Positions 1 to 15,497 of a stretch of 16,335 nucleotides of DNA are shown here, one piece after another. Source of the stretch: Eubacterium sp. (GTDB lineage: Bacteria; Bacillota_A; Clostridia; Lachnospirales; Lachnospiraceae); the NCBI GenBank assembly GCA_023663915.1, contig JAMPGN010000079.1:1-16335 (forward strand), in the 5' to 3' direction. Each line of letters opens with the position of its first letter. Position 1 is the stretch's first letter. The notes beneath the pieces were generated by a model. It was not told the origin of the DNA, ran no database searches, and saw only the letters and a list, made by a program, of their open reading frames with translations. The position numbers and the translations under genes are program-made.

Positions 1-2
1 AA

Positions 3-92
3 GATAATACAGTCGCGCTTGTAACTAAAGTATTGGATAACGAAGAATTTGTTAAACTGATACAGAATGAAACCACACAGATTATTTTTTAA
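3..92 (+). CDS. 3' end of an unidentified protein gene (partial)
   Basis: An open frame enters from the left edge and encodes 29 residues ending KLIQNETTQIIF before a TAA stop. The fragment is too short to assign to a family. It lies about 90 bases upstream of the Trypco2-like gene on the same strand, so it could be the upstream member of the same system (a protease or NTPase would be expected), but that is inference from position only. AT-rich composition matches the genes that follow. Confidence 0.55.
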   Translation, partial: DNTVALVTKVLDNEEFVKLIQNETTQIIF

Positions 93-137
93 AACAAATT
101 AAATAAGGTATGCCAAGCGTTAGTTCAGACATAAGTC

Positions 138-143
138 TATAAT
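138..143 (+). promoter_or_regulatory. possible -10 box upstream of the Trypco2-like gene
   Basis: A perfect TATAAT lies about 40 bases before the chosen start codon, but no good -35 hexamer sits 16-18 bases upstream. A short AGAC/GTCT inverted repeat overlaps it. It may be a weak or activator-dependent promoter, or only AT-rich background. Transcription from the upstream partial gene is equally possible. Confidence 0.3.
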
Positions 144-181
144 CTTTTATTGAAATTTTTACAGAAAGGTGGATGATACAT

Positions 182-553
182 ATGAGAAATATAGTGGAAA
201 AAGGGATATCGTTGAGTGATACTATTGGGGCGATTCAAGATGAGTTGATTAAAAGCCAGAAAAAACGGAAAGATCAGAATAAGCCAGCCCTTTTTGAAAC
301 GGATCGGCTTGTGCTGGAGGCAAATTGTATAATTACAAAAAATGTGGCCGTGGAAGGTGGTGTAGAATTTAAACTGATTCCGTGTCTGCCGGTTGACGCA
401 AAGGCGGATTATGCAAGTGAGAAAAGTATGGTGCATAAAATTACGATTGAATTTAAAACAGTTTCTTCTGAAACAACTGAGACGAGGAAACTTATGGGTG
501 AAATGAGTGGAAAGTATCCCAAAGCTACGGTTTTAAAATCACCGGAAAGATAG
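182..553 (+). CDS. Trypco2-like (trypsin-co-occurring domain 2) protein
   Basis: A 123-residue protein. Residues 8-24 form an amphipathic helix (ISLSDTIGAIQDEL), followed by a variable linker and a beta-rich part: FETDRLVLEANCIITKNVAVEGG, then a VEFKLIPCL strand, then HKITIEFKTV. This order (LSDaI..L..EL, then F....LELe..V, then GV.F..., then H.i.l.l.pv) is the pattern I know from the Trypco2 family. That family was described as co-occurring with trypsin-like peptidases in predicted NTP-dependent bacterial conflict systems; its biochemical role is not established. It is about the usual length for a stand-alone Trypco2 protein, with roughly 30 extra residues at the C-terminus. I chose ATG 182 rather than the in-frame ATG 173 because AAAGGTGG at 164-171 gives proper ribosome-binding spacing only for 182. 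It is the first complete gene of a three-gene same-strand block with a metallopeptidase-like and a TPR protein. The family call rests on pattern recognition without a profile search. Confidence 0.72.
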   Translation: MRNIVEKGISLSDTIGAIQDELIKSQKKRKDQNKPALFETDRLVLEANCIITKNVAVEGGVEFKLIPCLPVDAKADYASEKSMVHKITIEFKTVSSETTETRKLMGEMSGKYPKATVLKSPER

Positions 554-605
554 ACCATCTGACTGCATACAGAATGATTGTCGATTTGAAGGGATGATGC
601 TGCCT

Positions 606-2066
606 ATGAATTTATATGACATGACTGTTGTGAAAAATATATTTTGGAAGGCGCAGGAAGCAGAAGACTATTACAGTACGCAGGACTATAAGATAAATTT
701 GGATATGACATATGACGAATATCAACGTACATTGGAGGGATTCCGCAGCCGGCGAGCTGTCAGTGAAAATACGCGGACTATTCTGCATGAATATGGACAC
801 TGGCTGCAGGCGTCAGCAACCCCATATGGAATGTATCTGGAATGTCTTTCTATGCGTTCAAATGCAATACTGGTATATCTGATCCGAACAATTATACAGA
901 AATGCAAAGGAAAAACAGATGCCAGGATTCCGCTTCTGGATTTGCTGGAAGATAATTTTTTTCTCCGTAATGATACTGATATTACATGGCTGCTGTATAA
1001 ATGGCTGGATTTATTAGTGGTTCGACGTTATTTAGAAATGTCACTTTATGAATATCAGGAATATGCAGAAGCTTATCAGTCTATCAGGAGAGATGTGTCG
1101 AATTATCTGATGATTTCAAGCTATATACGGGATTTGGACAGGGATACAGCAAGGGAGTTTCAGAAACAGTCAGGCGTTAAATTTCCTTACAAACCTTCGG
1201 ATAACTTTATTTATAACTTAGACGAACGTGAGAGGGTGCAAGGTTTTGAATTGGCAATGGCAGAATACAAAGCCTGCTTTCGGATATCTATGAGGAGTTT
1301 ATATGAAAGTTTCAGCACGGCATTGGAGTGGTGTCTGGCGCCTGATGAATTTCACATACCAAATAAAATAGATAGGGAAATATCGGATTATTATTTTCCG
1401 CTTTCTATCCTGAAGAAATCGTTGGGGAAATGCAGCAATGGGCAGTTTCTATATTCTTGCATTGCTATATTTGACATCATTTTTTCTCCACCAATTTTTC
1501 CCCAGTGCAGTTTAATGCGCTCATATAAGTTTAATCTGTGTGACTATGATGTAAGCGCGAGATTTTATAGCATTATTTGGATTTTAGGGAATATAGGGCC
1601 TATACAGGGCGGGGAAGTTATTGAAGAATATCAGAGAAAAATCTGTCGAAGTCTGAACTGGGCAACCCCTATGGAAATTTCTGCAAAATTAGTTGAATGT
1701 AGCAATGCTTTGCCGCAGACGCCCACGACCAGAATTTTTTTGAATTTTCAAAACTGGCGTTTGAAGGGCTTTTGGCCTTTTTATGATATGGAAGAATATT
1801 TGTCTGAATTATCCACAAATATGATATCGGTTCCAGTACTACAGCTGACAGACGGGGTTTATATTGACCACGTGATAAACAATGAGATGGACTTTGCAAT
1901 GCCTTCCTTATTACAGCAGTTTTTAATACAGGCCATGACTTCGGAATCGTTTGATCTACGCTTGCCGTTTAAGATGGATTTGACAAAAAAAGTATTGGAA
2001 AAACAAATGCAGGAAATGCTGGAGGCGCTGGGAATTAGTATTGATTTACAGTTACAGAATCCATAG
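606..2066 (+). CDS. putative HExxH zinc metallopeptidase-like protein, family not recognised
   Basis: About 486 residues. The clearest motif is TILHEYGHWLQ near residues 58-68, a classic HExxH zinc site: two His ligands (61 and 65) and the catalytic Glu (62). Further on, SLYESFSTALEW (residues 231-242) resembles the helix that gives the third Glu ligand in gluzincin peptidases, so E234 is a candidate ligand. The rest is mostly predicted helix with many aromatic residues. I see no signal peptide or clear membrane segment, so it probably acts in the cytoplasm. I do not recognise a named family and the substrate is unknown. The gene follows the Trypco2-like gene by about 50 bases and precedes the TPR gene by 64 bases, which suggests one operon. 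In-frame ATGs also exist at 594 and 597; the AAGGG just before 594 is too close to serve that start, and 606 gives more normal spacing, so the exact start is uncertain. A peptidase in a Trypco2 setting suggests an effector or processing role (inference). Confidence 0.7.
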   Translation: MNLYDMTVVKNIFWKAQEAEDYYSTQDYKINLDMTYDEYQRTLEGFRSRRAVSENTRTILHEYGHWLQASATPYGMYLECLSMRSNAILVYLIRTIIQKCKGKTDARIPLLDLLEDNFFLRNDTDITWLLYKWLDLLVVRRYLEMSLYEYQEYAEAYQSIRRDVSNYLMISSYIRDLDRDTAREFQKQSGVKFPYKPSDNFIYNLDERERVQGFELAMAEYKACFRISMRSLYESFSTALEWCLAPDEFHIPNKIDREISDYYFPLSILKKSLGKCSNGQFLYSCIAIFDIIFSPPIFPQCSLMRSYKFNLCDYDVSARFYSIIWILGNIGPIQGGEVIEEYQRKICRSLNWATPMEISAKLVECSNALPQTPTTRIFLNFQNWRLKGFWPFYDMEEYLSELSTNMISVPVLQLTDGVYIDHVINNEMDFAMPSLLQQFLIQAMTSESFDLRLPFKMDLTKKVLEKQMQEMLEALGISIDLQLQNP

Positions 2067-2130
2067 GAATCATAATAAGAGGATCATCAAGGGTTCAAAC
2101 TGCCATATATAAGTTAAAAGGAGCATAAAT

Positions 2131-2874
2131 ATGGAAGAAATTATAAAAAAGGCAATGGAATTAGAAGAGGCAGGAAACATATCAGAGGCTATCATGTTGA
2201 TTGAAAGCTATGACGGATATATGTCAGATGAACTCTGGTATGTAAAAGGGAACTGTTTTCAAGATATGGGAAGGGATTACGAGGCGGTTACATGTTATCA
2301 AGAAGCGTTGCGTATTAATCCGTTTGGCGCAGAATACTTGAATAACATGGGTTTGTCGTATCTGTACATGAATAATCCGGTGGAAGCATTATATTATTTT
2401 GAACAGTCTATAAAGGCTGATCCCACACATGTAGAGGCTTTACTCAACAAGGCAGGGGTACAGGATGATTATTTTGCTGATTATGAGGATGCACTTGAGG
2501 CAATTAATGCGGCGGAAAAATTACAGCCGGATAATCATTTGGTTTATTATACAAAAGCAAATATTCTGTCTGATATGGGAAGTTATGTTCCCGCGCTTGT
2601 TAATTATGATAAGGCAATATTGCTTAAGCCCGATTTCCATGGTTTATATAACAACAAAGGCTTATGTTATAAGAGAATGGGAGAGTATGAAAAGGCGTTG
2701 GAATGTTTTAACAAAGCTTTAGAGCTGGGCGGAGAGGATGAAGTTTTAAACAATATGGGCCTGGTTTACCATTTTTTGGGAAAACATGAGGAGGCCATAG
2801 ATTGTTTTAAAAGATGTGATAAAATTGAAGGTCATAAAAATCTTCAGCTGTTTTATCCAGAGGCAGAAGATTGA
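2131..2874 (+). CDS. tetratricopeptide repeat (TPR) protein
   Basis: A 247-residue protein made almost wholly of about six TPR units between residues 35 and 235. Typical 34-residue units are visible: AEYLNNMGLSYLYMNNPVEA, then GLYNNKGLCYKRMGEYEKA, then EVLNNMGLVYHFLGKHEEA, each with the W/L-G-Y-A-F-A-P pattern (for example ALECFNKALEL). There is no signal peptide or membrane segment, so it is probably a cytoplasmic protein-binding scaffold. The start is well supported by AAAGGAG about eight bases before the ATG. It lies 64 bases behind the metallopeptidase-like gene on the same strand. TPR proteins often act as sensors or adaptors in multi-protein systems; here it could recognise a partner or regulate the peptidase (inference). 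No catalytic motif is visible. Confidence 0.85.
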   Translation: MEEIIKKAMELEEAGNISEAIMLIESYDGYMSDELWYVKGNCFQDMGRDYEAVTCYQEALRINPFGAEYLNNMGLSYLYMNNPVEALYYFEQSIKADPTHVEALLNKAGVQDDYFADYEDALEAINAAEKLQPDNHLVYYTKANILSDMGSYVPALVNYDKAILLKPDFHGLYNNKGLCYKRMGEYEKALECFNKALELGGEDEVLNNMGLVYHFLGKHEEAIDCFKRCDKIEGHKNLQLFYPEAED

Positions 2875-2908: not shown

Positions 2909-4816
2909 TCAGGTATGTGCGGCGTGGTGTTTTCTTTTTGCTTCATACATTTTTTGATCTGCCTTGGCAAACAATTCCTGAATGTGCTCCGGTGTAAAGT
3001 CCGGGGCAGGGAGTGCAGTGCAGAAACCGCAGCTACAGGAAATGCGGTATTCTTTGCCGCTTAATCGGTTGTAATTATCGAGGTAGGATTCGATTGCCTC
3101 TATGCGGAGCTTGGCTTCTTTCTCGGAAAGACCGACGGTGAGCATATAAAATTCATCTCCCGAAAAACGGGCGCATAAGTCGTCTTCCTCTGCGGTGCTT
3201 TCCAATGCCTGTCCCAACACTCGGATTGCGAAATCACCCTCGCTGTGTCCATAGGTGTCATTGATTGTTTTCAGTTCGTCTATATCGATCAGAAATGCAG
3301 TGAGCGGAAGGTTGTCGGAAACGGCGCGGTTTAAAATCTGTTCTTCCATATGATTGTAGCCGTGTTTGTTATACAGTCCGGTCAAAGAATCTCTCATGTA
3401 GATATCTTCCAGACGGGTGACAAGCATTCCGGTGCGTTTGGCTTCAAAGATACTCTGTAACATCTGGTTTATGTTGATCTGCCATTGCACCAGCCGGAAA
3501 TGGTAGTCAATCTGGTTATCCTTATAGGAAAGAGCGATATAGCCGAATTTTTTATCCTCAAAAAACAGAGGAGTGTAAATGTATGCGCAGTCGGAATTGT
3601 TATAGATATAGTCCGGAAGCAGGTTCTTTTTCCGGTAGCTGCATTCGGGCAGTCTCTTTCCGTTTTTGAAGGCAAATTTTAGTGAGATCGTATCCGTGTC
3701 TGTCCGGGTTTCTTTGGTGTTTGTGAGAGCGAGAATATGGCTTGAAACGGAGTCCCAGTCGGAGTACAGGCAGAGATAAAATTCTTGGCAGTTTTCTATT
3801 TTTTGCACAAATTGTTCCAGAAGATCCATGCCGCAGTCAAGATCAGAGACATGCTGTAAGGCAGCGGACATGCTCATGGAAACGAGAATGGAGCTTTCTA
3901 ACGCCTCAATTCGTGAGGACAATTCCCTGACAAAAAAGACAGAGTTTGCATTTTCGGAAGAACTGCATCCACAGGAGTTATGGATAAGCGGTTTCGCGGA
4001 CAATAAAGTTGTGTCCGGCAGATCGCCGCCATGGATCAAGGTAAGCAGATTCTCGACCGCGCAAGTTCCAAGTTCATAGACCGGAAAAGAAACGGTGGTA
4101 AGCATAGGGGAAGTGTTATGTCCTTCCGGTGTGTCATCACAGCCGGTTATGGCGATGTCTTCCGGGATGCGGAAACCTGCGGCAAGCACGGCGGCAAGAA
4201 ACAATAGCGCCAGCCGGTCATTGTAACAGACCACGGCTTGCGGCGTTCCTGCTTCGAGGAAAAAGGCAAGTGCCTCATTGACGGCGGCGGCATCATAAAC
4301 GCAATGGTAAATATCTTTTTCGCCAGGTGTTTTCCCATGCTTTTTCAAGGCTTCCCGATAATAGTTTTCCCGCAGATCTGAAATGAAAGATTCTTCCGAA
4401 CAACCAAGGTAACAGACGCGGTCGGCATGATGCACGGTAAGAAAATGTGCAGTCAGTTCTCCAGCCATGGAACTATTCTCTAAAGAGACTGCCGGAAACT
4501 GGTTGTCTGCCACGGCAATTTCCACGATGGGACAGGAGAGGGACTGTAATTTGTTTTGGATTTTATGTTTTAAATCGGAAGAGATATAGGTGTTCGAGGC
4601 GAAAATAACGCCATCAAAACTGTCATAATTGGGAATGTGCAGAATGCTTTCCTCGCCGATCTCGTATGCGCCGAGATTTTCTCCGTCGAGTGAGGTAAAA
4701 ATTTCCGCAGTGTATCCGTACTCCAACGCTTTGTCGATAATGCCCTGGCATACGCCCTGCTGATAGGCTCCGAATATATGTGAGATAAATACGCCGATTT
4801 TTTGGGAATGGTACAT
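2909..4816 (-). CDS. diguanylate cyclase with LacI/periplasmic-binding-like sensor domain
   Basis: A 635-residue protein predicted to make cyclic di-GMP in response to a small ligand. Residues 5-275 are a LacI-type (PBP1-like) sugar-binding fold without a DNA-binding helix-turn-helix or signal peptide: IGVFISHIFGAYQQG at the start, FDGVIFAS at 67-74, VVCYNDRLALLFL at 195-207, DIAITGCDD at 220-228. A Cys-rich NSCGC (280-284) ends the domain. Residues 300-460 look like a GAF-like or linker region, and 470-632 are a GGDEF domain with RDSLTGLYNKHGY (475-487), FLIDIDELKTIND (508-520) and the active-site loop FSGDEF (551-556). SGDEF replaces GGDEF. The residues where an RxxD inhibitory site would lie read AEEDD, so product-feedback control seems absent. 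The start has a strong AGGAGG seven bases upstream. It is cytoplasmic, since no membrane segment is seen, so it would sense an intracellular metabolite. The specific ligand cannot be told from sequence. Confidence 0.9.
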   Translation of the reverse strand: MYHSQKIGVFISHIFGAYQQGVCQGIIDKALEYGYTAEIFTSLDGENLGAYEIGEESILHIPNYDSFDGVIFASNTYISSDLKHKIQNKLQSLSCPIVEIAVADNQFPAVSLENSSMAGELTAHFLTVHHADRVCYLGCSEESFISDLRENYYREALKKHGKTPGEKDIYHCVYDAAAVNEALAFFLEAGTPQAVVCYNDRLALLFLAAVLAAGFRIPEDIAITGCDDTPEGHNTSPMLTTVSFPVYELGTCAVENLLTLIHGGDLPDTTLLSAKPLIHNSCGCSSSENANSVFFVRELSSRIEALESSILVSMSMSAALQHVSDLDCGMDLLEQFVQKIENCQEFYLCLYSDWDSVSSHILALTNTKETRTDTDTISLKFAFKNGKRLPECSYRKKNLLPDYIYNNSDCAYIYTPLFFEDKKFGYIALSYKDNQIDYHFRLVQWQININQMLQSIFEAKRTGMLVTRLEDIYMRDSLTGLYNKHGYNHMEEQILNRAVSDNLPLTAFLIDIDELKTINDTYGHSEGDFAIRVLGQALESTAEEDDLCARFSGDEFYMLTVGLSEKEAKLRIEAIESYLDNYNRLSGKEYRISCSCGFCTALPAPDFTPEHIQELFAKADQKMYEAKRKHHAAHT

Positions 4817-4838
4817 GAAGAGTCCCTCCTGTCTGTAT

Positions 4839-4909
4839 TAGGAAATTCCTATGCTTATTCCGAGTTTGCCGAAGGCAAATCTCGCAAACGAGCGTTAGCT
4901 CGTTTTTTT
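4839..4909. repeat. interspersed palindromic repeat, copy A
   Basis: Shares two blocks with 10398-10484. The left 26 bases (4839-4864, beginning TAGGAAATTCCTATGC) match at 22 of 26 positions, and AATCTCGCAAACGAG (4878-4892) matches at 15 of 15. Between them copy A has a hairpin, CGAG-TTTGCC-GAA-GGCAAA-t-CTCG (4861-4884). Both ends are rich in inverted repeats and there is no coding content. This looks like a small non-autonomous element of REP or MITE type, placed 23 bases upstream of the cyclase start codon. Confidence 0.6.
4886..4909 (+). terminator. terminator-like hairpin inside repeat copy A
   Basis: AAACGAGC - GTTA - GCTCGTTT is an 8-bp perfect stem with a 4-base loop, followed by four more T residues (seven T in all). 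It fits a Rho-independent terminator for plus-strand transcription. No plus-strand gene ends nearby, so it may belong to the repeat or block antisense transcription into the region ahead of the HipA-like operon. On the minus strand it lies in the likely 5' leader of the cyclase gene but is not followed by a T run. Confidence 0.55.
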
Positions 4910-5035
4910 AATTGTAATGGAATGGAGAAGAATTTGCAATCGCTGGATTGGATTATAAAAGGAGATTGTTTGGGGAGGCATAACCGGATTACTTTAATAT
5001 GTGTGATGGTTTGTTTCTATTTTTAGGAGTTTGAA

Positions 5036-5064
5036 TTGACGATATTTTTGTATGCTAATATAAT
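5036..5064 (+). promoter_or_regulatory. sigma-A type promoter for the 80-aa protein / HipA-like operon
   Basis: TTGACG (5036-5041), a 17-base spacer and a perfect TATAAT (5059-5064) lie 48 bases before the start of the 80-aa gene. Transcription would begin near 5071. This is among the best promoter matches in the window. Confidence 0.75.
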
Positions 5065-5112
5065 AAAAATAACGGTGGCATAAGTTTTGATGGAAGGGCA
5101 GTTGAGGGCGCA

Positions 5113-5355
5113 ATGGCGGATCAGTGGGAAGAAAAACAGATGAAATCTACACGGGAAGAGGCATATGAATATGGTCTGCCGGAATATTTACAGCATGACC
5201 TTGACGCATACAAAGCCGCATTACAGCATGGTTCGAGTATATTAGACTGCTTGTGGGGAGAATTATACGGAAGCATCAATGCAGCCGAGATTACCGACGG
5301 CGTCATTACGGCGGAGCATGCGGATTATTTAAGGAAAAAGTATTTGTTGGGGTAA
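5113..5355 (+). CDS. small protein of unknown function paired with HipA-like kinase
   Basis: An 80-residue acidic protein with no signal peptide or membrane segment. The central part, YGLPEYLQHDLDAYKAALQH, looks helical. It is followed by the segment SSILDCLWGELYGSINAAEI and a C-terminal EHADYLRKKYL helix. I do not recognise a domain, and there is no helix-turn-helix as in HipB. It is preceded by GAGGG four bases before the ATG; an alternative internal start at 5140 also has an upstream purine-rich site. It is five bases upstream of the HipA-like kinase and shares its promoter. The arrangement allows an antitoxin or kinase-adaptor role, which is inference only. Confidence 0.72.
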   Translation: MADQWEEKQMKSTREEAYEYGLPEYLQHDLDAYKAALQHGSSILDCLWGELYGSINAAEITDGVITAEHADYLRKKYLLG

Positions 5356-5360
5356 TAGAT

Positions 5361-6266
5361 ATGGTTGATTTTACGGAATGCAGAAGAATATTTGCAAAAG
5401 CGTATAATGGTGCGAACGGAAAGAAAATCGCGGTTGAATATGCGGGTGAGCAGTATATGTTGAAGTTTCCGGCTTCCGGCAAAGAAAAGCCGACGGAATT
5501 ATCCTATACAAACAGTTGCATCAGTGAGCATATTGCAAGCAGTGTTTTCAATATGCTTGGAATATCTGCGCAACAGACATTGCTCGGCATCTATCGGGTA
5601 AATGGCAAAGAAAAAATTGTGTGTGCCTGTAAAGATTTTACGGCTGGTGGTAAAATCCTGTATGATTTCTGTTCCATCAAAAACTCGGTGATCGATTCCG
5701 AACATAACGGCAGTGGGACAGAATTGGCAGATATCCTGGAAACGATAGAAAAACAGCAGTTTGTCAATCCGGCAATGCTCTTAGGGCATTTTTGGAATGT
5801 GTTTGTCGTGGATGCGCTGCTGGGGAATTTTGACAGGCATAACGGTAACTGGGGATTTCTGGTCGATCCGGTTTCCCAGACAGCAGAATTAGCCCCAGTA
5901 TATGATTGCGGGAGCTGCCTTCTCCCGCAGGCTGATGAAAAGGTTATGCTGCGCGTGCTGGAAAACGAAGCGGAGTTAAATGCCAGAGTATATCAGTTTC
6001 CGACATCCGCAATCAAGCAGACAGACAGAAAAATAAATTACCATGATTTTCTTATGAATCCGGGATATCAGGAGTGCGACGAGGCGTTACTTAGAATTGT
6101 TCCGAGAATTGATATAGGAGAAATAACGGCTTTTGTGGAGCAGGTGCAATCGATATCGGAACTTCAAAAGAGGTTTTATAAGACTTATCTTTCTGCCAGA
6201 TATGATAAAATGATTAAGCCGGCATATGGACTGGCTTTGAAAAGACTTGGAAGGGACGAGGAATAA
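5361..6266 (+). CDS. HipA/CtkA-like serine/threonine kinase
   Basis: A 301-residue protein with the HipA-like C-terminal kinase pattern. A beta-rich N-terminus carries QYMLKFP with the likely ATP-binding K35. The catalytic loop is LLGNFDRHNGNWGFL (residues 153-167) with D158 as catalytic base and N163 as metal ligand, followed by PVYDCGSCL (179-187), where D182 takes the role of the second metal-binding Asp. The order N-F-D-R-H-x-G-N-W then YDxGSxL is typical of HipA and of the shorter CtkA-type kinases, which lack the HipA N-terminal subdomain. HipA toxins phosphorylate aminoacyl-tRNA synthetases, but the substrate here is unknown. I chose ATG 5361. A longer frame from 5253 would lie inside the upstream gene and carries no family sequence before this point. 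The ribosome-binding site is weak (TTGGGGTAA), consistent with translational coupling to the gene five bases upstream. Confidence 0.85.
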   Translation: MVDFTECRRIFAKAYNGANGKKIAVEYAGEQYMLKFPASGKEKPTELSYTNSCISEHIASSVFNMLGISAQQTLLGIYRVNGKEKIVCACKDFTAGGKILYDFCSIKNSVIDSEHNGSGTELADILETIEKQQFVNPAMLLGHFWNVFVVDALLGNFDRHNGNWGFLVDPVSQTAELAPVYDCGSCLLPQADEKVMLRVLENEAELNARVYQFPTSAIKQTDRKINYHDFLMNPGYQECDEALLRIVPRIDIGEITAFVEQVQSISELQKRFYKTYLSARYDKMIKPAYGLALKRLGRDEE

Positions 6267-6279
6267 CAGGGATAATTCT

Positions 6280-6301
6280 TTCTAATTTGAGGGAATTAGA
6301 A
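6280..6301. repeat. AT-rich inverted repeat between the kinase gene and panT promoter
   Basis: TTCTAATT and AATTAGAA form a perfect 8-bp inverted repeat around the 6-base loop TGAGGG. No T run follows on the plus strand, so it is a poor terminator. It ends eight bases upstream of the panT -35 box, a position suited to an operator, but no known regulator site is recognised. Confidence 0.4.
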
Positions 6302-14084: not shown

Positions 14085-15497
14085 ATGAAAAGAGTAAATG
14101 AAATTTTATTGGTGATGATCTTTGTATTGACGGCGGTTCTGGCGGCGGCGGTCGGTCTGAAAGCGTATGATATTTACGACACGGACAGGCGGCTTGCCAA
14201 GGAGCAGGAAGAGCTGGAGATCGCACAGGTGTATGCGCGTAACGAGGAGGCGCAGAGCCGTGTCCAGGAGATGCAGGCGGAGATCATGCAGCTGACGGAA
14301 GACAAGGAGGATCTGGAACGCTTTATCACCCAGATACAAAACGGTGAAGTGGGAAAAGGTAGCGATTCGGCGCAGTCAGATAGTACCATATCCGGTAACA
14401 GTGCGGCATGGGAAAACGGTACGGTATCGGGAAACCAGACGGTATCCGGTAACGCCACGGTATCCGGTAATGGTACAGTGTCCGGCAATGGTACGGTATC
14501 CGGCAATAGCACGGTGTGGGGCAACGGTACGGTATCCGGCAATGATACCGTGTCGGGCAACGATATGGTGTCTGGTAACAGCCTTTCCTGGTTCGATAAA
14601 AGCAGCGTGTCCGCAAACGGCGAGATCAATTATTATGACGGTTCGATGACGGAGCATAGCATTTTTGATGCGTGGCGTTACATTTATGAACAGCCCGACA
14701 ATATGTCCTTGGAAGAGCGTCGCCAGCTCCGCACTTCGCTGGAGGAGACGCTGGAGGTAAACCAGTCTGACCGGGAGCGGATCGCTGAGAATAGGAGAGA
14801 TTTTTCGGAGCTGAAAATTGCCTGCTTAGGCGATAGCATTACGGCGGCGGCAAATCTGGAAAATGAGGAAGACTATCAGCAGCATGCGTATCCGGCAAGG
14901 CTTAAGGAACTGCTTGGAGCGGAGGAAGTCTACAATCTCGGAATTGGCGGTTCGTCGATCGGCAGATATTGGGCGGACGCATATGTGGACAGATATCAGG
15001 AAATACCGGAAGATTCGGATATTATTATTGTCATGGGCGGCACGAATGACGGATTCTGCGTTTCGGACAAGGAGTTTGGCAGTCTGGAAGAGCGCAGTTA
15101 CAGGACTTTCTGCGGGGATCTGGACGAGCTGATGAGAGGGCTTCGTGAGAATTATCCCGACGCGGAAATCTTTTTTGCAACGCCTCTGCCGAATATTTTA
15201 CAGGATTATCTGATGATCGAGCGCGATTATCTGCTGCCGCAGCAGGCTTTCGTGAATGTGATCCTGACGCTGGCGAAGGAATATGATTTTGAGGTGGTTG
15301 ATCTGTATAATTCCAACATTCTGGATTCCCATGATGCAAATGTGGTGGCGGACTATGTACCGGACGGGGTACATGCCAACCACGAGGGCTACCAGATCAT
15401 GGCGGAGCATTTTGCCTCGGAAATCATACAGCATTACGAAGATCTCGATGAGGAGCAGGGGTCGGTGTCAGCAAATGACCTGCAGGATGGTGAGTAG
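14085..15497 (+). CDS. membrane-anchored SGNH/GDSL hydrolase with VSGN hexapeptide repeats
   Basis: A 470-residue predicted surface protein. Residues 7-27 are a membrane segment (LLVMIFVLTAVLAAAVGL) that works as a signal anchor. Residues 35-85 are a charged coiled coil, 100-165 are eleven hexapeptide repeats of the type GTVSGN, and 240-455 are an SGNH hydrolase domain. The hydrolase blocks are all present: CLGDSIT (247-253) with nucleophile S251, NLGIGGSS (284-291) with G286, MGGTND (317-322) with N321, and PDGVHANHEG (426-435) with D427 and H430. Enzymes of this fold deacylate lipids, glycans or peptidoglycan; the substrate here cannot be told. VSAN also appears at 175-178 and 461-464. GATGATGGGA precedes the ATG. 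It sits between rlmB and sigH, two bases before the latter, where other Firmicutes often have yacP, so the gene is a lineage-specific insertion in a conserved order. A role in the cell envelope or in sporulation is possible (inference). Confidence 0.88.
   Translation: MKRVNEILLVMIFVLTAVLAAAVGLKAYDIYDTDRRLAKEQEELEIAQVYARNEEAQSRVQEMQAEIMQLTEDKEDLERFITQIQNGEVGKGSDSAQSDSTISGNSAAWENGTVSGNQTVSGNATVSGNGTVSGNGTVSGNSTVWGNGTVSGNDTVSGNDMVSGNSLSWFDKSSVSANGEINYYDGSMTEHSIFDAWRYIYEQPDNMSLEERRQLRTSLEETLEVNQSDRERIAENRRDFSELKIACLGDSITAAANLENEEDYQQHAYPARLKELLGAEEVYNLGIGGSSIGRYWADAYVDRYQEIPEDSDIIIVMGGTNDGFCVSDKEFGSLEERSYRTFCGDLDELMRGLRENYPDAEIFFATPLPNILQDYLMIERDYLLPQQAFVNVILTLAKEYDFEVVDLYNSNILDSHDANVVADYVPDGVHANHEGYQIMAEHFASEIIQHYEDLDEEQGSVSANDLQDGE
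14382..14579 (+). repeat. in-frame tandem 18-base repeat encoding VSGN hexapeptides
   Basis: Eleven 18-base units encode STISGN, SAAWEN, GTVSGN, QTVSGN, ATVSGN, GTVSGN, GTVSGN, STVWGN, GTVSGN, DTVSGN and DMVSGN. The consensus DNA unit is close to GGTACGGTATCCGGCAAT, with mostly third-position differences, so protein sequence appears to be conserved while DNA has drifted. The unit number could vary between strains by slippage. Confidence 0.9.

What the first reader, a model, noticed from the sequence alone, without database searches (positions are those of the whole stretch)
1..2874. Trypco2 + HExxH metallopeptidase + TPR gene set: a possible undescribed conflict system
Three same-strand genes encode a Trypco2-like protein (182-553), a protein with HEYGH (606-2066) and a TPR protein (2131-2874). 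Trypco2 is known from predicted NTP-dependent conflict systems, where a trypsin-like protease is the usual partner. Here the adjacent protease candidate is a zinc peptidase, and no ATPase is visible inside the window. A peptidase effector, a small Trypco2 regulator and a TPR sensor would make a logical defence or regulated-cell-death module.
Basis: partly seen in the sequence, partly recalled or inferred. Interest (0 to 1): 0.72.

Follow-up and report, generated by a model that had tools for sequence, protein, structure and literature searches.

The report
Trypco2-linked zinc peptidase gene module
An accessory gene set in a Lachnospiraceae-like bacterium joins a small protein best known as a neighbour of trypsin-like proteases with an uncharacterised zinc-peptidase-like protein and a repeat protein; it may be a protease-based defence or cell-death module, but no function has been shown.

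Summary
182-553 encodes a true Trypco2 protein (PF19631, E 1.3e-9). 606-2066 encodes an orphan family with 8 relative clusters in the large protein set; HE[YN]GHWLQ is invariant in 9 of 9 members, and the densest invariant stretches fall on it and on ESFSTxLEW. 2131-2874 encodes a TPR protein. Trypco2 and zincin appear to travel together: 5 of 8 zincin clusters share their longest-contig length with a Trypco2 cluster (contigs not read). TPR linkage beyond the window was not tested. None of the three was found in 77 genomes of the genus nearest by a neighbouring gene. They lie in a low-GC stretch absent from relatives. Elsewhere one Trypco2 gene adjoins a trypsin-TPR fusion, another a trypsin with sub-threshold TPR, so the window resembles that arrangement with the peptidase exchanged. 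Trypco2 here also has a short recurring C-terminal motif behind a variable linker. Defence is inference: no defence model hits Trypco2 or zincin, and an upstream gene is cut off. New variant of a known kind.

The parts
3..92 (+). last 29 codons and stop of an upstream gene cut off by the contig end; possible fourth member, identity unknown
   Evidence: open frame to TAA; no Pfam or PHROGs hit; best match in the 23 loci then held has E 1.5
182..553 (+). Trypco2 protein, 123 aa (an in-frame ATG at 173 is possible)
   Evidence: PF19631 E 1.3e-9, 38.6 bits, cut-off 24.2, residues 9-92; 14 clusters of relatives beside its own entry
509..550 (+). short recurring C-terminal motif GKYPKATVLKSPER behind a variable linker; possible docking or cleavage peptide
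   Evidence: G-x(1,2)-P-[KH] behind a linker of 16-44 residues in 15 of 15 sequences, followed by V[LI]xS in 12 of 15; mean pairwise identity of the motif 0.61 against 0.99 for the last 12 residues of the domain, first 13 sequences (pattern chosen after seeing the alignment); residues 97-123 have pLDDT <50
606..2066 (+). zinc-peptidase-like protein, 486 aa (zincin candidate)
   Evidence: orphan family, 8 clusters at 38-87% identity; no Pfam, NCBIfam, PADLOC or PHROGs hit at E 1 and no PDB relative
786..800 (+). HEYGH, proposed zinc-binding and catalytic motif
   Evidence: H61, E62, G64, H65, W66, L67, Q68 invariant in 9 of 9
1305..1331 (+). ESFSTALEW, proposed helix with third zinc ligand (E234 or E241)
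   Evidence: 12-residue windows starting at 231, 233, 234 and 235 have 9 invariant positions, the family maximum; ligand role inferred
1866..1886 (+). DHVINNE: second invariant His with D and E; alternative ligand site
   Evidence: D421, H422, N426, E427 invariant in 9 of 9
2131..2874 (+). TPR-repeat protein, 247 aa, proposed sensor or scaffold
   Evidence: PF00515 E 3.7e-44, 5 stretches; AAGGAG seven bases before its ATG; no match at E 1e-20 in 77 of 77 genomes of the genus of G001, weaker TPR matches not listed

Best explanation
An accessory, probably horizontally acquired operon encodes a regulated zinc peptidase. The HExxH protein is the enzyme. The Trypco2 protein is its dedicated partner that holds, targets or gates it, as Trypco proteins may do for trypsin-like proteases, probably using its folded domain plus the C-terminal tail. 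The TPR protein supplies the protein-binding surface that senses the trigger or presents the substrate, a job that in a Trypco2-trypsin locus seen here is done by TPRs fused to the protease. When triggered (most likely by phage or another invader), the peptidase would cleave a cell or phage protein. Shown: gene content, family membership of Trypco2, conservation of the HExxH signature, presence of the genes in a stretch absent from relatives. Inferred: catalysis, gating, the TPR role, the trigger, and defence.
For: Trypco2 profile hit. HExxH invariant in 9 of 9, with the densest invariant stretches on it and on ESFSTxLEW. Identical longest-contig lengths for 5 zincin/Trypco2 cluster pairs: 18494, 14390, 35917, 7212, 29002; distances of the six pairs (window included) correlate, r 0.94, 15 of 720 permutations as high. 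None of the three genes found in 77 genomes of the genus of G001. DNA similarity to L001 begins at 2887, just past the TPR gene; GC is 0.36-0.41 within 1-2700 and 0.47-0.53 from 6601 on. Parallel architecture: Trypco2 next to a Trypsin_2-TPR protein in L035, and next to a Trypsin_2 protein with sub-threshold TPR on a Tunicatimonas plasmid that also bears SieB. Those two trypsin-type proteins hit defence models such as RT-Protease_XI and LmuA, mostly weakly. Precedent for a peptidase effector: T4 Gol peptide can activate the Lit protease, which cleaves EF-Tu, when both are overproduced (passage of PMC9712102).
Against: No PADLOC hit for Trypco2 or zincin; no match in phages, plasmids or viral contigs. 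AF2 model of the zincin is poor (pLDDT 49) and has no PDB match at E 0.001, so the fold is not shown. The clustering of invariant positions is only modest by itself: 2.8% of permutations reach the same peak. TPR linkage untested outside the window. Without the divergent P0007/P0022 pair the distance correlation falls to r 0.32 (13 of 120), so co-divergence rests on one pair. Three of 8 zincin clusters and 9 of 15 Trypco2 clusters have no matching contig length; 6 of those 9 have contigs long enough to hold both genes. In 6 related loci no defence gene was recognised at this site, by eye only.
Confidence: 0.4

Rival explanations
1. Peptide-processing pair: the small protein is the substrate. 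The zincin cuts the disordered linker of the Trypco2 protein and releases the C-terminal peptide as a signal, with the TPR protein as its receptor.
For: Linker of 16-44 residues ending in a recurring short motif, low confidence in the model as expected of a disordered tail. Precedent: zincin-like peptidase plus small precursor with conserved C-terminal peptide in VMAP ternary systems (passages of PMC7159879).
Against: The passages do not give that precursor a Trypco2 domain; here the folded domain is better conserved than the tail (0.99 against 0.61). A C-terminal motif is equally expected for docking. Two of 15 sequences end soon after the G-x-P part.
Confidence: 0.2
2. Ordinary regulated proteolysis, not immunity: an accessory cytoplasmic peptidase with adaptor and TPR scaffold that controls some cell process such as stress response or secretion.
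For: No defence-model hit for Trypco2 or zincin and no match in phage or plasmid records. Some Trypco2 proteins elsewhere look exported or lipid-anchored by eye, so the domain is not confined to immunity.
Against: Very patchy: zincin in 0 of 397 family and 0 of 77 genus genomes, Trypco2 in 0 of 77, TPR in 0 of 77, unlike a housekeeping regulator.
Confidence: 0.25
3. The real module is larger: an upstream NTPase or other gene cut by the contig end is the sensor, as in MoxR-vWA or STAND systems, and the TPR gene may be a passenger.
For: A same-strand gene ends 89 bases before Trypco2. One Trypco2 in L033 lies beside a 1438-aa NACHT protein on the same strand.
Against: The 29 residues seen match nothing, which is weak evidence for so short a piece.
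Confidence: 0.1
4. The HExxH is incidental or the protein is a dead enzyme, used only for binding.
For: No profile or fold match to any peptidase. Inactive peptidase domains are frequent in the effector position of related systems (passage of PMC7159879), and inactive zincin-like domains are mentioned in iSTAND2 systems (passage of PMC8195603).
Against: 41 of 20,000 shuffles give the motif by chance; it is invariant in 9 of 9.
Confidence: 0.05

Closest known systems
Trypco2-trypsin pairs of VMAP (MoxR-vWA) ternary conflict systems (PMC7159879, passages seen)
   Same: Trypco2 gene next to a peptidase gene
   Different: peptidase is zincin-like, not trypsin; no vWA, MoxR or VMAP among the 6 window proteins scanned; Lachnospiraceae-type host
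Trypco2 beside Trypsin_2 proteins outside a visible ternary system (L035; Tunicatimonas plasmid NZ_CP120686.1)
   Same: Trypco2, peptidase and TPR together (TPR sub-threshold in the plasmid case)
   Different: there trypsin and TPR are one protein; here zincin and TPR are separate genes
Lit peptidase (abortive infection, EF-Tu cleavage)
   Same: a zinc peptidase acting on phage trigger (Lit's zinc and HExxH are recalled; the EF-Tu cleavage is from a passage of PMC9712102)
   Different: no Pfam hit at all for the window protein; no Trypco2 partner of Lit is known to me (recalled)
FxSxx-type peptide-processing systems (zincin plus small precursor; PMC7159879, passages seen)
   Same: zincin next to a small protein with a recurring C-terminus
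   Different: small protein here carries a Trypco2 domain; host is not actinobacterial

Membership tests
Trypco2 (PF19631) | profile score above curated cut-off | tested here: met
   38.6 bits against 24.2
Trypco2-trypsin conflict module | trypsin-like peptidase next to Trypco2 | tested here: not met
   the downstream neighbour has no trypsin domain; it has HEYGH; of the upstream neighbour only 29 residues are seen
VMAP / MoxR-vWA ternary system | MoxR AAA ATPase, vWA protein and VMAP | tested here: inconclusive
   none among the 6 window proteins scanned; contig ends upstream
zincin (MA-type) metallopeptidase | conserved HExxH | tested here: met
   invariant in 9 of 9
zincin (MA-type) metallopeptidase | zincin fold and third ligand | tested here: inconclusive
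   model pLDDT 49, no PDB match at E 0.001; E234 and E241 invariant
Lit peptidase | match to a Lit-type Pfam family | tested here: not met
   no Pfam family for the window protein at E 1 or 10; that Pfam holds a Lit family is recalled
known anti-phage defence system | PADLOC model hit | tested here: not met
   none for Trypco2 or zincin; three weak TPR-region hits for the third gene
known anti-phage defence system | protection from phage | not testable with these tools
   needs an experiment

The most novel reading that the evidence does not exclude
A zinc-peptidase branch of Trypco2 conflict systems: Trypco2 is a general peptidase-gating adaptor that works with unrelated catalytic folds (serine or zinc), with the TPR sensor fused in one branch and free in the other, and with a C-terminal tail that docks to, or is cut by, the peptidase.
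Probability: 0.35. Interest if true: 0.7.

Novelty: new variant of a known kind. Interest (0 to 1): 0.5.

Why it matters
Trypco domains were named for the company they keep (passage of PMC7159879), and I saw no demonstrated function for them in the passages read. A locus where the same domain accompanies a peptidase of another catalytic class would mean that Trypco2 acts on something other than the trypsin fold, such as substrate choice or activation, which could be tested directly with three genes. It would also add a rare, unnamed zincin-like family to the candidate immune effectors.

Tried and rejected
Searches for the zincin in phages, plasmids and viral contigs: no match. The genome contigs pattern scan with the zincin alignment: 18 pattern matches, none a relative. 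Whole genomes with the zincin profile: 0 of 11, 0 of 397, 0 of 77 and 0 of 295 (sets overlap in part); the tool notes that without a genome known to match, such an empty answer shows nothing. Trypco2 family in whole genomes: 0 of 391, 0 of 11, 0 of 77, 0 of 200, and 7 of 297 (6 over the cut-off) in the phylum of an Aminicenantes genome; the tool's control rang in 2 of 14. Window Trypco2 in phages and plasmids: no match; in viral contigs 150 pattern matches, none a relative. Trypco2 of L034 in plasmids: none; of L035: 1 record. TPR protein in viral contigs: 5 pattern matches, none a relative.

Fold searches of both models gave no match at E 0.001; the models are weak (pLDDT 49 and 65). PDB sequence search of Trypco2: 4 hits, best 8ub3 'DpHF7 filament' E 7.1e-5 over residues 26-81, no single stretch passing; I take these as chance likeness to designed helical proteins (designed: recalled). 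Zincin profile in PDB: two hits at E about 1; in Pfam two families at E 0.28 and 0.4, each in 1 of 9 members. Promoter and terminator scan: 17 and 4 sites against 17.0 and 4.8 in shuffles. The stretch after the TPR gene does not fold better than shuffles. Repeats that would bound an element: none convincing; one AT-rich 14-base inverted pair at 84-97 and 2802-2815 is taken as chance. No tRNA in the window.

Rejected: a MoxR-vWA ternary system as shown (no part visible); a Lit homologue (no profile hit); phage or plasmid cargo (no match in those collections).

Full report
WHAT IS THERE. The window is 16,335 bases, and the entry for its own Trypco2 protein gives that as its longest contig; no whole genome is held. 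Most of it looks like core chromosome of a Lachnospiraceae bacterium: the GGDEF gene from 2887 and the stretch from about 6297 on align with L001, L002, L003 and L005, all titled Lachnospiraceae, mostly at 73-86% DNA identity, with a few short pieces at 70-76%. Bases 1-2874 hold three same-strand genes and the tail of a fourth. Gaps are 89 bases (tail to Trypco2), 52 (Trypco2 to zincin) and 64 (zincin to TPR) by the coordinates, with an AAGGAG seven bases before the TPR start. That is compatible with one operon; the promoter and terminator scan adds nothing above chance.

TRYPCO2. The 123-aa product scores 38.6 bits against PF19631, cut-off 24.2. Its search returned 15 clusters, one of them the window's own. 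Trypco2 is rare in this lineage as sampled: 0 of 391 genomes of the class, 0 of 77 of the genus and 0 of 200 of the family of G001, the genome of L001. The 15 sequences share a domain, then a linker of 16-44 residues, then a short end with G-x(1,2)-P-[KH], followed by V[LI]xS in 12 of 15. I chose that pattern after seeing the alignment; the motif is less conserved (mean pairwise identity 0.61 in the first 13 sequences) than the last 12 residues of the domain (0.99), and linker identity was not measured. The model puts a long helix before three strands and has pLDDT under 50 at 97-123 (mean 65). No solved structure matches at E 0.001.

THE PEPTIDASE CANDIDATE. The 486-aa product has no Pfam, NCBIfam, PADLOC or PHROGs hit at E 1 and no PDB relative. 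The large protein set gives 8 clusters at 38-87% identity, and a second, profile-based search added none; the window's own entry, listed for Trypco2, is not in this list, for reasons unknown to me. In the alignment of 9, 109 of 486 positions are invariant; the densest 12-residue windows (9 of 12) start at residue 64 and at 231, 233, 234 and 235, that is GHWLQ...TPYG behind the HE, and ESFSTxLEW. 2.8% of permutations reach the same peak, so the clustering by itself is modest; what carries weight is that it falls on the HExxH. Shuffling the protein gives HExxH in 41 of 20,000 trials. I read this as a gluzincin-like site (class features recalled) with E234 or E241 as third ligand; D421-H422 and E427 are an alternative. 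The fold is not shown: the model has pLDDT 49 and no match.

DO THEY TRAVEL TOGETHER. No gene neighbourhood of the relatives could be read. The protein tables give the longest contig per cluster, and 5 of 8 zincin clusters share that exact length with a Trypco2 cluster: 18494, 14390, 35917, 7212 and 29002. With the window that makes six pairs, one at 44% zincin identity. Three zincin clusters (6670, 8743, 7076) and nine Trypco2 clusters have no such match; of those nine, three have longest contigs of 986-1245 bases, too short to hold both genes, and six do not have that excuse, though a cluster's other contigs are not listed. This is inference from lengths, but five coincidences are hard to credit; it says nothing of the distance between the genes. 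The six pairs' distances correlate (r 0.94, 15 of 720 permutations), but without the most divergent pair r is 0.32 (13 of 120), so co-divergence is weakly supported. The TPR gene was not searched in that set. It has no match at E 1e-20 in the same 77 genomes in which the other two were not found.

SURROUNDINGS. DNA similarity to L001 starts at 2887, 12 bases after the TPR stop codon. In 5 of the 6 loci that I listed (L001, L002, L003, L005, L008) the gene next to the GGDEF gene there begins with VLIVE or close to it and looks by eye like a response regulator; genes that look like transport genes follow except where the L005 stretch ends; L004 has a different one first. No domain search was made on these. 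GC is 0.36-0.41 in windows within 1-2700 and 0.47-0.53 from 6601 on, with values between in the GGDEF and HipA-like part. So the three genes sit in an accessory stretch, not in a recognised defence island. No repeats or tRNA mark its ends.

COMPANY OF TRYPCO2 ELSEWHERE. Of 297 genomes in the phylum of an Aminicenantes genome, 7 had a match, 6 over the cut-off, at 9 places. I saw about 3.2 kb around each of the 9 and asked for longer stretches for 3 (one was 3.7 kb in all). L035 has Trypco2 followed by a Trypsin_2-TPR protein, L033 lies beside a 1438-aa NACHT protein, L034 beside a DUF4760 protein. A plasmid of Tunicatimonas pelagia runs SieB, hypothetical, Trypco2, serine protease; that protease has Trypsin_2 above and TPR below the Pfam cut-off. 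The two trypsin-type proteins hit PADLOC models such as RT-Protease_XI and LmuA (best E 2e-15 and 1e-6), while the Trypco2 proteins and P0007 and P0008 hit none. [quoted passage not shown] Another calls Trypco1 and Trypco2 adapter domains and tells of a locus with Trypco2 and no complete VMAP system (PMC10907252). A third mentions inactive zincin-like domains in related systems and has no Trypco text (PMC8195603). Text searches for Trypco2 found two papers; two combined word searches found none and two papers. In the passages seen there is no Trypco2-zincin pair; the library lacks most subscription journals and I did not read supplements.

READING. One locus clearly, and a second more weakly, show Trypco2 beside a trypsin with TPRs; the window has Trypco2, a zincin candidate and a free TPR protein. 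The simplest account is a regulated peptidase with Trypco2 as partner and TPRs for recognition. Defence or regulated death is plausible from rarity, accessory state and the company of Trypco2, but nothing here tests it, and some Trypco2 proteins look exported by eye, which speaks against a single immune role.

Noticed in passing
about 4822-6296: A second stretch without similarity in L001, L002, L003 and L005, on the other side of the GGDEF gene: an 80-aa ORF (5113-5355) and a HipA_C-like protein (5355-6266; PDC-M03A in PADLOC, best E 2e-27).
   Followed up: partly
2909-4816: Protein joining a LacI-type sugar-binding domain to a GGDEF domain, with no DNA-binding domain among its Pfam hits; relatives at 67-86% identity in 12 loci, L001-L012.
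   Followed up: no
14085-15497: Protein that looks by eye like an SGNH-type hydrolase, with a run of VSGN-type repeats in its N-terminal half and out-of-frame ORFs over the same stretch.
   Followed up: no
L036 5687-9419: Tunicatimonas plasmid with SieB, a hypothetical gene, Trypco2 and a Trypsin_2 protein in a row on one strand, a compact candidate defence cassette.
   Followed up: partly
L027 1123-1737 and L028 1492-2127: Trypco2 proteins with what look by eye like lipoprotein signal sequences, each with two Trypco2 matches in one frame, beside a gene that looks by eye like guaA: perhaps an exported kind of Trypco2.
   Followed up: no
L033 8129-12736: Trypco2 match next to a 1438-aa NACHT protein on the same strand.
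   Followed up: no
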